Part shown: in pieces, positions 17,073 through 57,458 of the stretch
How the letters are laid out: each line of letters starts with the position of its first letter
How positions within the stretch are numbered: the stretch's first letter is position 1
Origin: Anaerolineae bacterium
GTDB lineage: Bacteria; Chloroflexota; Anaerolineae; Aggregatilineales; Phototrophicaceae
DNA: 64,000 bases
Assembly: GCA_030950085.1 (NCBI GenBank)
Contig: JAUZRW010000029.1
Coordinates: forward strand, 1 to 64,000
Reading direction: 5' to 3'
Program-made: the position numbers and the translations under genes
Notes under the pieces: generated by a model
The model's input: only the letters and a program-made list of their open reading frames with translations
Told to the model about the DNA's origin: nothing
The model's database searches: none

Positions 17073-18755
17073 TTATCCTTCGGCTTCTAAAACATTTCCT
17101 GCACAAGAATCATAGTTTGAGCCGACAATCACTTCATAATCGACTGTGCGCTGTGGGTCAGGTTGAACAGTCACATTCGCATTACTAATATTGAGTTCTT
17201 CCAGAATTAGCGGCAACGGACTCCCCCTATCTAATCCGGCATAGTCAATAATCTGTGTATCAGCCCTATTCGTCTGGTCAGCAACTCCGGCAGCATAAGC
17301 ATTTAATCCTGAAGCTCGCAAACGCTCAGATGCCACAATATCCCAATTCTCGTTGCTTGTGCCATTATAGACCGCTACCGTTGGTGCTGAGGCTTGTAGC
17401 TGACTTGATGTCGGTGGCTGATAAAAATCTTCAAACAATTGTCGAACAGGTTCATAGATTGGTAGTTGCACGAATTGTCCTGCAAAGGGTCCGCTAGGTG
17501 GTTGCCATGGTAGCGTATGATAAGTACGAATCAGGGTAAAGTTTTCAATTCGTCCTGCATCAAGGTTAAGTGCAATCGGCAATAAACCAGCCGCAACATC
17601 AAGTGGAATATCTGTTTCTACTACTGAGGTTAATTGCCCCCACAAATTCAGTAGATTCGCCAATTGTCCGTTATCTCGTCCAGCACGATATATGGCACGC
17701 AGTAATTGTTGCTGCCGACGACCTCTATCAAAATCTGTGGTGAGATTGCGCGTCCGTGCGAACCACAATGCCTCACCACCTGTAAAATGGTAATAACCGA
17801 CAGGCAGTGTATAGAGCAAAGCCTCTTCATCCGCTAATACTGCTTGACTAGGCACATCAGCACCAATTAAGGCATAGTCTTGATAATTACAATCCACAGC
17901 AATATCAACGCCTCCAAGCGTGTCAATAATCTCGCGCATCCCACTGAGATTGACTTTTGCATAATAATGCAATTGAATCCCGAAGTTGTAGAAAATCGTT
18001 TCGCGCATGAGTCCGAAACCACCCCCTGACCACCCAAAACTCTCGCCAATGCCAAAAACTGTATTTAAGCGTGTCATAGTCGGTGTCGGGGTGTAGATAA
18101 ACAAATCACGCGGTAGACTCATCATGGCGACTGATTCTGTTTCTGTATTGATGGAAACAATAATCATCGTATCAGTGCGGAGCGTATTATCATTCGTGAT
18201 TTCACCATCATCGCCGAGCAGCAAAATGTTGATGAGTTCATAATCACGCGGAATCACAGGCACACGAGTTGGGACGGCTGTTCCGGCAATCGTTTGTTCC
18301 GATGAATTAGCGGGTGGGAAGAAAGTCGGTAATACGATAGGAGTCTGTTGGCGCTCTGCAATATCCGTTGGCAGAATAGGCGTTGCTGTGATAGAAGGGG
18401 GTTCAGTGGCTATTGGTGTATTGGTCGGGAACCCGCCACCGCCGTTAGACACAGTTGCTTCTTCAACAGCATCTTGTGGCGTATTCGTCGCAAATTGCAT
18501 TAAGCGAATTTGTCCGTTACTACCCTGCTCATTATCATCAGATTGTGCTGCAATTGCTGATGCAGTTGCGGCATAATCGCCTTGTCGGGATGCAATTTGC
18601 GATTGTTCGATATAACTACTCCAAAGCACACCGATAATCTGAAACAGTGTCCATAGAATAGCCATTAGCAATAATGTTGGAATGATGCGAAAAGTGAAAA
18701 AGCTCAATATCCCACGCAGGGAGATTCTCTTGCGTTGTTGTAATTCGGTAGACAT
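17073..18755 (-). CDS. LytR-CpsA-Psr (LCP) family protein with LytR_C domain
   Basis: 560 residues. One N-terminal membrane helix (about 15-40) is followed by a Thr/Pro-rich spacer (about 85-165), then the LCP domain (about 175-420) with LLLGDDG, LRTDTMIIVS, SLPRDLFI and the Arg-rich FARTRNLTTDFDRGRRQQQLL motif that binds the polyprenyl-pyrophosphate substrate. A C-terminal LytR_C domain (about 455-545, VAVYNGTSNE) follows. LCP enzymes attach glycopolymers to peptidoglycan or other acceptors at the outer face of the membrane. It is the last of three minus-strand genes after the kinase and the LysM protein. Confidence 0.9.
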   Translation of the reverse strand: MSTELQQRKRISLRGILSFFTFRIIPTLLLMAILWTLFQIIGVLWSSYIEQSQIASRQGDYAATASAIAAQSDDNEQGSNGQIRLMQFATNTPQDAVEEATVSNGGGGFPTNTPIATEPPSITATPILPTDIAERQQTPIVLPTFFPPANSSEQTIAGTAVPTRVPVIPRDYELINILLLGDDGEITNDNTLRTDTMIIVSINTETESVAMMSLPRDLFIYTPTPTMTRLNTVFGIGESFGWSGGGFGLMRETIFYNFGIQLHYYAKVNLSGMREIIDTLGGVDIAVDCNYQDYALIGADVPSQAVLADEEALLYTLPVGYYHFTGGEALWFARTRNLTTDFDRGRRQQQLLRAIYRAGRDNGQLANLLNLWGQLTSVVETDIPLDVAAGLLPIALNLDAGRIENFTLIRTYHTLPWQPPSGPFAGQFVQLPIYEPVRQLFEDFYQPPTSSQLQASAPTVAVYNGTSNENWDIVASERLRASGLNAYAAGVADQTNRADTQIIDYAGLDRGSPLPLILEELNISNANVTVQPDPQRTVDYEVIVGSNYDSCAGNVLEAEG

Positions 18756-38696: not shown

Positions 38697-38803
38697 CCCT
38701 CATCTGCCAGAATATCCACCTGCCGGAATTGGCACCTTCCCATCTATGAATGGGGGTTGCCGCAGGGTCATCGGGCCGTTCCCTCGCCTGCTCTGGATGA
38801 AAG
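38697..38803 (-). promoter_or_regulatory. SAM-I (S-box) riboswitch
   Basis: On the minus strand the RNA has the S-box core: P1 CTTTCATC/GATGAGGG closes the aptamer; CCAGAGCAGGCGAGGGA, then CGGCCCGATGA and CCTGCGGCAACC form P2 with its kink-turn and pseudoknot; P3 is CCCCAT/ATGGGA; GGTGCCAATTCC and GGCAGG complete J3/4 and P4. It senses S-adenosylmethionine and usually switches expression off. Downstream there are two hairpins (CTGATACAG/CTGTATCAG and ACAATGGTG/CACTATTGT), so the expression platform may be translational or an unusual terminator. The gene starts about 170 bases further on. Confidence 0.9.
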
Positions 38804-55899: not shown

Positions 55900-57168
55900 T
55901 TAGTCGCGCTTGAACTTGCTATAATCTGGTTGTCGCCAACGAACCTCTTTGCCACCCTCAATATCTAGCAAAGCCTCGACCTTCATTGGGAGACCAAATA
56001 ATTGGATGAAACCATGGGCATCTTGCTGATTGTAAACATCTTCCTCGCCAAAAGACGCATAATCTTCACGGTAAAGGCTAAATGGACTTTTACGTCCAGC
56101 GATAATCACATTGCCTTTATATAACTTCAAACGCACCGTGCCAGATACCTGTTCTTGCGTGACCTGAACAAAGGCATCTAATGATTCACGCAGACGGGTG
56201 AACCACATACCGTTATAAACCAGTTCTGCATATTTGACCGCAATCGCATCTTTATAACCCATGGTATGTTTATCAAGGCAGATACTTTCTAGTGCCTGAT
56301 GTGCGCGATGTATCACCGTACCAGCAGGGGTTTCATAAACACCGCGACTCTTCATCCCCACGAGCCGATTTTCTACAATATCAATCCGCCCAATGCCATG
56401 TTTTCCGGCTAGTTCATTGAGATATTCAAATATCGCCACCGAAGACATTTCTTTGCCATTGACACTCATTGGAGACCCTTTTTCAAAGCCGATTTCGACA
56501 TACTCTGCTTCATCAGGCGCTTCTTCTGGGCTGACACTCAATTGGAACATAGAGGTTTCGGGTTCATTCCAAGGGTTTTCGAGCAAACCCCCTTCATGCG
56601 ATAAGTGGAAGATATTGCGGTCACGGCTATAAATATCTTTTTCAGTATGTGTGACAGGAATATTGAATTCAGTCGCGTAAGCCAGCGCATCTTCCCGACT
56701 GCGAATATCCCATTCACGCCAAGGAGCTATGACTTTTAGTTTAGGGTTGAGTGCCATTGTGGTCAATTCAAACCGTACTTGGTCATTTCCTTTGCCTGTA
56801 CAACCATGCGCCACGGCATCTGCTCCCTCAAGTTCCGCGATTTCAACCATATGCTTGGCAATAATAGGGCGTGCAAACGATGTCCCTAGTAGATACTCGC
56901 GTTCATAAACTGCGCCAGCTTGCATTGTAGGGAAAACATAATCATTGAGGAATTCTTCGCGCAAGTCGCGGACGTAAAGTTTGCTTGCGCCGGATGCAAT
57001 CGCCTTTTCTTCCAGTCCGTCTAACTCTCCCTGCTGCCCTAAATCTGCTGTAAAGCAGATAACTTCGCAATCGCCATAATTGTGCTTAAGCCAAGGAACA
57101 ATTACGGATGTATCTAGCCCACCGCTATAGGCTAAGACAACTTTTTTTACTGTGCCTTTGGATTGCAT
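55900..57168 (-). CDS. argG: Argininosuccinate synthase
   Basis: 422 residues. The N-terminal ATP loop [15 protein letters not shown] near residues 13-27 and [15 protein letters not shown] near residues 119-133 identify it. It joins citrulline and aspartate using ATP. CAGGAGAG lies 8 bases before the ATG. The transcript begins with the Arg-rich leader and terminator described next. Confidence 0.96.
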
Positions 57169-57271
57169 AGTTTTACTCTCCTGTTAAATGATAAATATGA
57201 GCCTAATCGTAACGCATACCCGTATTTTGTGCAGTTGTGCAATACAACAGAGTACGCTGTGCAACTTGCAA

Positions 57272-57306
57272 CAAAAAAACCCCCGACTAACTTCTAGGCG
57301 AGGGTT
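57272..57306 (-). terminator. arg attenuator terminator
   Basis: The stem AACCCTCG/CGGGGGTT, extended by CTA/TAG, ends in a run of seven T on the minus strand. It lies between the Arg-rich leader and argG. The 5' arm can also pair with CGGGAGTT (57362-57355) inside the leader frame. Confidence 0.85.
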
Positions 57307-57344
57307 ACTGCGTTTCTCAAAATTGGGTTACATGCCACAAACCG

Positions 57345-57422
57345 TCAACGCAAAAACTCCCGACTGATTGTCAGGCGACGACGGATACGACGATGACTAC
57401 TGATGTAGATATGCGTTTTCAT
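57345..57422 (-). CDS. arg operon leader peptide (Arg-rich)
   Basis: A 25-codon frame with residues 10-16 HRRIRRR and further Arg at 21 and 25, seven Arg in all, mostly CGT. The likely transcript start is only a couple of bases before the ATG, so it would be almost leaderless. The last third of the frame (CGGGAGTT) is the complement of the terminator's 5' arm: a ribosome stalled at the Arg block would leave it free to form an antiterminator, while a ribosome at the stop would cover it. This is the logic of ribosome-mediated attenuation for an arginine operon. Confidence 0.78.
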   Translation of the reverse strand: MKTHIYISSHRRIRRRLTISREFLR

Positions 57423-57430
57423 GATTGAAA

Positions 57431-57458
57431 ATCATAGCGCATGATTTGAAAATTGCAA
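57431..57458 (-). promoter_or_regulatory. Promoter of the arg leader
   Basis: TTGCAA, a 16-base spacer and TATGAT on the minus strand, ending 8 bases before the leader ATG. Confidence 0.6.

What the first reader, a model, noticed from the sequence alone, without database searches (positions are those of the whole stretch)
57272..57458. Arginine leader-peptide attenuator before argG
Seen: a promoter (TTGCAA, 16 bases, TATGAT), a 25-codon frame with HRRIRRR, a terminator with seven T, and an arm (CGGGAGTT) inside the frame that can pair with the terminator's 5' arm AACCCTCG at 7 of 8 positions. The leader copy and the terminator 3' arm are related sequences (CAGTCGGGAG and TAGTCGGGGG). Known: ribosome-mediated attenuation is described for many amino-acid operons, but arginine operons are usually under ArgR repressor control. 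Inference: argG (and perhaps argH) is switched by charged tRNA-Arg in this bacterium, with an almost leaderless leader mRNA.
Basis: partly seen in the sequence, partly recalled or inferred. Interest (0 to 1): 0.82.

Follow-up and report, generated by a model that had tools for sequence, protein, structure and literature searches.

The report
Arginine-sensing leader peptide before argG
Just before an arginine-making gene, this bacterium has a tiny arginine-rich reading frame and an RNA off-switch that together appear to sense whether arginine is running short; many relatives have the same arrangement, and it seems to do the work that other bacteria give to a repressor protein called ArgR.

Summary
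Upstream of argG (57168-55900, -) lie a promoter, a 25-codon frame that should be leaderless (HRRIRRR), and a terminator with seven T. Of 89 argG upstream regions in the same GTDB family, 28 carry the architecture. An automatic test for promoter, Arg-rich frame and terminator together finds 22, against none on the reverse strand and none in shuffles; other amino acids give at most 3. In all 27 mapped copies the best complement of the terminator's 5' arm starts within -6 to +10 nt of the edge of a ribosome stalled on the last clustered Arg codon, and own pairing beats swapped pairing (0 of 20,000 permutations). The same layout precedes argG in other families of the order, class and phylum, and in Desulfobacterales whose ArgG nests inside the window's family. 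ArgR was found in none of 98 family genomes, nor in 12 of those Desulfobacterales. Most likely it is a classical ribosome-mediated attenuator with arginine specificity, taking the place of ArgR. I found no earlier description in the papers held. In this genome a possible second promoter behind the terminator could bypass it.

The parts
57431..57458 (-). Promoter P1: TTGCAA, 16 nt, TATGAT; -10 box ends 8 nt before the leader ATG, so the mRNA should start at or next to the ATG
   Evidence: in relatives mostly TTGACA-16-TATGCT at the same distance
57345..57422 (-). Leader-peptide ORF, 25 codons: MKTHIYISSHRRIRRRLTISREFLR*
   Evidence: counterparts in 27 other genomes of the family
57375..57392 (-). 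Control codons CGT CGT ATC CGT CGT CGC (Arg codons 11-12 and 14-16)
   Evidence: CGT/CGC/CGA make up 163 of 170 leader Arg codons in the family
57347..57362 (-). Antiterminator 5' strand (segment 2): CGGGAGTT TTT GCGTT, starting just beyond the edge of a ribosome stalled at Arg16
57299..57314 (-). Antiterminator 3' strand (segment 3): AACGC AGT AACCCTCG; AACCCTCG is also the terminator's 5' arm
57278..57306 (-). Intrinsic terminator hairpin (8-bp stem plus inner 3 bp)
   Evidence: -12.9 kcal/mol
57273..57279 (-). T7 tract of the terminator
57206..57216 (-). Possible second promoter (extended -10 TGCGTTACGAT) between terminator and argG, would bypass the attenuator; weak
   Evidence: TGCGnTAnnAT-like box in the same place in several relatives
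55900..57168 (-). argG, argininosuccinate synthase, the controlled gene
   Evidence: NF001770 624 bits (cut-off 334), TIGR00032 487 bits
54351..55781 (-). argH, argininosuccinate lyase, 118 nt after argG, probably co-transcribed
   Evidence: TIGR00838 613 bits; no terminator-like site found in the gap on this strand

Best explanation
A ribosome-mediated transcription attenuator that senses charged tRNA-Arg and controls argG, probably with argH. Transcription starts at or next to the leader ATG. If charged tRNA-Arg is scarce, the leading ribosome stalls on the Arg cluster (codons 11-16). The segment just past its 3' edge (CGGGAGTT...GCGTT) stays free and pairs with AACGC..AACCCTCG as that emerges, so the terminator cannot form and argG is transcribed. 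If arginine is plentiful, the ribosome runs on to the stop codon and covers that segment; AACCCTCG then pairs with CGGGGGTT and transcription ends in the T tract. Shown: sequence, conservation, alternative pairing, its position relative to the Arg codons, absence of ArgR. Inferred: translation, stalling, termination, the arginine response, co-transcription of argH.
For: (1) 22 of 89 family upstream regions hold promoter, ATG-initiated frame with at least 4 Arg in 8 codons, and terminator in the right order; 0 on the reverse strand, 0 in shuffles; other amino acids give at most 3. With hand-checked weaker cases the count is 28. (2) The best complement of the terminator 5' arm starts at -6 to +10 nt from A-site+13 of the last clustered Arg codon in 27 of 27 copies; chance product for 23 representatives 2e-18, ignoring kinship. 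(3) Own segment-2/5'-arm pairing averages -13.1 kcal/mol against -10.7 when swapped, 0 of 20,000 permutations as good. (4) 17 distinct 5' arms among 23 terminators, kept paired by compensatory changes. (5) -10 to ATG distance 6-8 nt in 26 of 27. (6) 163 of 170 leader Arg codons are CGT/CGC/CGA against 129 of 156 in ordinary genes of the window, p 1e-4. (7) ArgR found in 0 of 98 family genomes while controls ring. (8) Same architecture in families f93 and f95 of the order, f2 (13 of 13 examined) of the class, f25 and f64 of the phylum. (9) Desulfobacterales with ArgG nested in the window's family keep the switch with different leader peptides, and 12 of 12 lack ArgR.
Against: No expression data. 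In the window's own copy the antiterminator has an A.C mismatch and the terminator state is more stable at equilibrium (-22.7 against -17.4), so it must act by forming first, as in textbook attenuators. In the swap test the window's own leader arm is not a specially good fit to its own terminator arm (20 of 22 other arms pair better over the 22-nt stretch). 61 of 89 family genomes, including nearly all of the largest genus (g22), do not show the element at argG. A possible second promoter may lessen control in this genome. No such leader was found before argJ or carA in relatives, so only the argG step would be switched. Kinship between genomes inflates the statistics.
Confidence: 0.87

Rival explanations
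1. The short frame and terminator are real, but the frame encodes a small basic protein or belongs to an upstream sRNA, and the terminator only ends that transcript; argG is driven by its own promoter P2.
For: A possible second promoter lies between terminator and argG in this genome and some relatives; the leader is Arg-rich like a nucleic-acid-binding peptide.
Against: In most copies the terminator sits 23-40 nt before argG with little room for a promoter. Peptide length (16-33) and flanks vary; only the Arg run is kept. A protein function would not place the terminator complement at the stalled ribosome's edge.
Confidence: 0.06
2. Arginine-attenuator-peptide type control: the nascent peptide, not codon starvation, stalls the ribosome in response to free arginine (as the fungal AAP does).
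For: The stretch RRIRRRR is similar at the peptide level in many relatives.
Against: A stall at high arginine would free segment 2 and switch a biosynthetic gene on, the wrong sign. Other peptide sequences (RVRRLR, RNRRRR, PRTRRPKP) sit in the same architecture, so Arg codons matter more than a fixed peptide.
Confidence: 0.03
3. General sensor of slow translation (antibiotic or ribosome stress) rather than arginine-specific.
For: Any stall over codons 11-16 would give antitermination.
Against: Specific Arg enrichment (22 for Arg, at most 3 for any other amino acid) before an arginine gene, in genomes without ArgR.
Confidence: 0.03
4. Chance: a random Arg-rich frame next to an unrelated terminator.
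For: The whole leader fold is not exceptional (z -0.51) and the promoter scan finds no excess.
Against: Comparative controls give zero in shuffles and on the reverse strand.
Confidence: 0.01

Closest known systems
Classical amino-acid leader-peptide attenuators (trp, his, thr, leu, ilv, phe operons)
   Same: Leader ORF with a run of codons for the pathway's amino acid, mutually exclusive antiterminator and terminator, stalled-ribosome geometry.
   Different: Arginine is the sensed amino acid. The survey of Actinobacteria (PMC1262725) lists arginine under T-boxes and found no RNA element at arginine operons there; the premature-terminator survey (PMC2965389) stated in 2010 that leader-peptide systems were known only from Proteobacteria and Actinobacteria before its Bacillus hisS case.
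Salmonella speF / orf34 leader
   Same: Bacterial upstream ORF with consecutive Arg codons whose ribosome pausing depends on arginine (PMC6386406).
   Different: Controls ornithine decarboxylase through Rho, RNase G and RBS masking, not arginine biosynthesis through an intrinsic terminator; long mRNA leader with a Shine-Dalgarno site.
Sinorhizobium meliloti trpL (rnTrpL)
   Same: Leaderless leader-peptide attenuator: the RNA starts at the ATG (PMC7298713).
   Different: Senses tryptophan; Alphaproteobacteria.
Pseudomonas aeruginosa carA leader peptide
   Same: Leader peptide before a gene of arginine/pyrimidine synthesis; attenuation suggested (PMC4997734).
   Different: Attenuation there is ascribed to pyrimidines, with arginine control at the transcriptional level.
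ArgR/AhrC repressor control of arginine operons
   Same: Same biological job; in some Chloroflexota (f31) argR lies directly upstream of argG.
   Different: DNA-binding protein; not found in any genome of the window's family nor in any class member of the sample.
Arginine-specific T-box riboswitch
   Same: Senses tRNA-Arg charging upstream of arginine genes (T-boxes for arginine are cited in PMC1262725).
   Different: No T-box hit in the window at Rfam's gathering score; sensing here uses a translating ribosome.

Membership tests
Classical ribosome-mediated transcription attenuator | Short leader ORF with clustered codons for the end product of the controlled pathway | tested here: met
Classical ribosome-mediated transcription attenuator | Intrinsic terminator between leader ORF and first structural gene | tested here: met
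   conserved in relatives with compensatory changes
Classical ribosome-mediated transcription attenuator | Antiterminator pairing that excludes the terminator, left free by a ribosome stalled on the control codons | tested here: met
   position -6 to +10 nt in 27 of 27, swap test 0 of 20,000
Classical ribosome-mediated transcription attenuator | Leader is translated and the ribosome stalls when the amino acid is scarce | not testable with these tools
   needs ribosome profiling or reporter mutants
Classical ribosome-mediated transcription attenuator | Terminated and read-through transcripts change with amino-acid supply | not testable with these tools
   needs RNA measurements
ArgR regulon | ArgR repressor encoded in the genome | tested here: not met
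   PF02863: 0 of 98 family genomes, own genome included; 8 of 14 controls ring
T-box riboswitch | T-box covariance-model match upstream of the gene | tested here: not met
   Rfam at gathering threshold: only SAM riboswitch and two tRNAs in the window
Leaderless mRNA | Transcription start at the start codon | tested here: inconclusive
   -10 to ATG distance 6-8 nt in 26 of 27 predicts it; the 5' end was not mapped

The most novel reading that the evidence does not exclude
Arginine-sensing attenuation at argG is the ancestral control in a large part of Chloroflexota, standing where other members of the phylum carry an argR gene. It was later carried as a unit, with argG, into Desulfobacterales, where the leader exchanged leaderless initiation for a 5' UTR while keeping the Arg run and the alternative hairpins: a self-contained arginine switch that crosses phyla.
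Probability: 0.5. Interest if true: 0.72.

Novelty: new member of a known kind. Interest (0 to 1): 0.6.

Why it matters
Arginine is the textbook case of an amino acid controlled by a repressor protein, and I found no described bacterial leader-peptide attenuator for its biosynthesis in the papers held. This one recurs across Chloroflexota lineages that lack ArgR, and in Desulfobacterales, so it fills a gap in how these abundant, mostly uncultured bacteria control arginine. It also makes a regulator swap (repressor against ribosome) and a regulator's transfer between phyla directly testable.

Tried and rejected
A genome-wide pattern search for the Arg core gave exact matches only at argG among the rows listed, but 3-mismatch hits in GC-rich genomes are noise, as the reversed-pattern control shows. 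Searching upstream of argJ and carA in relatives for further Arg leaders gave only three hits that do not look like leaders. The energy of the whole leader and the promoter scan do not discriminate. A peptide-protein reading and an AAP-like reading were rejected (see rivals). In f9 (L121, L123) the Arg frame and terminator are there, but the antiterminator register is unclear, and in f5 (L126, L137) the Arg cluster is weak; for several f25 members the automatic best complement lay elsewhere in GC-rich sequence, although CTGGCT/AGCCAG is visible by eye; these are not counted as strong cases. Literature: ten searches of the PMC library, none describing an argG attenuator; subscription journals are not covered.

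Full report
OBSERVATION. The window is part of contig C189 of a 5.09 Mb draft genome. The region upstream of argG was read on the - strand. argG (57168-55900) and argH (55781-54351) are secure by NCBIfam. Taken alone the sequence is only suggestive: the whole leader is not exceptionally stable (z -0.51) and promoter-like sites are no more frequent than in shuffles.

COMPARISON WITHIN THE FAMILY. ArgG was found in 91 of 98 genomes of the same GTDB family. Upstream regions of 89 were examined, and 28 carry the architecture (27, plus L067). Leader peptides vary in length (16-33 codons) and in flanks, but share an Arg cluster, most often RRIRRRR. In 26 of 27 the -10 hexamer ends 6-8 nt before the ATG, and the -35/-10 spacer is 16 nt in 25 of 27, which predicts a leaderless leader mRNA. 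The terminator usually stands 23-40 nt before argG. In an automatic test that asks for promoter, frame with at least 4 Arg in 8 codons, and terminator, 22 of 89 pass; the reverse strand gives 0 and ten dinucleotide shuffles per sequence give 0. For the other nineteen amino acids the same test gives at most 3 (Gly 3, Pro 1, Thr 1).

GEOMETRY. For each leader the stretch most complementary to the terminator's 5' arm was sought between the leader ATG and the terminator. In 27 of 27 it starts between -6 and +10 nt of the position 13 nt after the first base of the last clustered Arg codon, that is, at the 3' edge of a ribosome stalled there. The chance product for 23 dissimilar representatives is 2e-18 if positions were free; shared ancestry makes this too optimistic, but the terminator arms themselves differ (17 distinct arms among 23), and on average a leader pairs with its own arm better than with swapped arms (-13.1 against -10.7 kcal/mol; 0 of 20,000 permutations). 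This holds for the set, not for every member: the window's own leader arm is among the weaker fits. Once a ribosome is at the stop codon, the remaining RNA folds into the terminator in nearly all copies (in L014, L068 and L072, whose stop codon lies before segment 2, this simple model does not separate the two states). In the window's own copy the terminator state is more stable at equilibrium (-22.7 against -17.4), so the switch must be kinetic, as in textbook attenuators (my knowledge).

CODONS. 163 of 170 leader Arg codons are CGT, CGC or CGA, against 129 of 156 in seven ordinary genes of the window (p 1e-4). These three codons are read by a single inosine-containing tRNA-Arg in most bacteria (general knowledge), so the leader may watch one tRNA.

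REPRESSOR. ArgR (PF02863) is absent from all 98 family genomes, although the same search rings in 8 of 14 control genomes. In a 400-genome sample of the phylum it occurs in 97 genomes, none in the window's class and none in the leader-bearing families f25 and f64. In several f31 genomes argR lies immediately upstream of argG (for example G473: argR domain ends at 17236, argG match starts at 17259): repressor gene and attenuator occupy the same place in different branches of one phylum.

WIDER DISTRIBUTION. Arg leaders with terminators also precede argG in families f93 and f95 of the same order, in all 13 examined genomes of family f2 of the same class (MFSLFALPRTRRPKP..., again with the -10 box about 10 nt before the ATG), and in f25 and f64 of the phylum; weaker cases are f5, f9, f12 and f13. 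Some relatives with argG inside other gene clusters show no leader.

TRANSFER. The nearest ArgG proteins outside Chloroflexota (77-83% identical) belong to Desulfobacterales and other deltaproteobacterial bins. In a 67-row tree they form one clade inside the window's family, next to the window's own lineage (SH-aLRT 97 for the clade, 82 and 90 for the forks above it; quick tree only). Of 13 with a readable upstream region 11 carry an Arg leader (such as MVLYSSNTRIRIRNRRRRIRQAPGCFLCWI) with terminator and leader complement. There the -10 box lies 28-33 nt before the ATG, so initiation seems to have changed from leaderless to leadered. All 12 genomes of this group that were searched lack ArgR. 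Transfer of argG together with its switch is the simplest reading. Bin contamination is unlikely for a coherent clade from so many separate assemblies, but was not tested gene by gene.

LIMITS. 61 of 89 family genomes do not show the element at argG, including nearly all members of the largest genus. No convincing Arg leader was found before argJ or carA in the relatives' loci examined. In the window's genome and a few relatives a TGCGnTAnnAT box with TTGCACA motifs lies between terminator and argG and may be a second promoter that bypasses the switch. No transcript or translation data exist.

LITERATURE. Ten searches of the PMC library found no argG or arginine-biosynthesis leader-peptide attenuator in bacteria. 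The nearest cases are Salmonella speF orf34 (PMC6386406), leaderless trpL of Sinorhizobium (PMC7298713), the Actinobacteria survey that found nothing for arginine (PMC1262725) and the premature-terminator survey (PMC2965389). Subscription journals were not covered, so 'undescribed' is provisional.

VERDICT. A real, conserved arginine attenuator of the classical kind: new in specificity and lineage, ordinary in mechanism.

Noticed in passing
window 54238-54077, - strand: Second leader-peptide attenuator candidate: MNLSSGRKTVMRTNNTNISIIILVLVLVIISGL* (run of Ile/Leu/Val codons) followed by terminator AACCTCCCAAGTGGAGGTTTTTTT, upstream of a small ORF, a branched-chain aminotransferase-like gene (53817-52882) and an acetolactate synthase-like gene (52878-51178).
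   Followed up: partly
window 57260-57206, - strand: TTGCACA motifs and an extended -10 box between attenuator and argG, shared with relatives that have lost the leader; possible promoter P2 or operator.
   Followed up: partly
L268, L269, L271, L280, L298, L301, L316, L320-L324, L330: Desulfobacterales argG apparently acquired from the window's Chloroflexota family, in most cases with its Arg leader; the leaders gained a 5' UTR of about 25 nt.
   Followed up: yes
L076, L080, L083, L084, L268, L271: Relatives that keep a promoter and a terminator directly before argG but have no Arg-rich leader frame: decayed attenuators or another kind of control.
   Followed up: no
Family f31 genomes, e.g. 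G473:C28:17051-17259: argR lies immediately upstream of argG in ArgR-bearing Chloroflexota, where other branches have the attenuator.
   Followed up: partly
window 38697-38803, - strand: SAM riboswitch (RF00162, 88 bits).
   Followed up: no
G000 contigs C175 and C7: The genome's argJ matches in two pieces on two contigs (profile positions 1-221 and 195-377), probably an assembly break.
   Followed up: no
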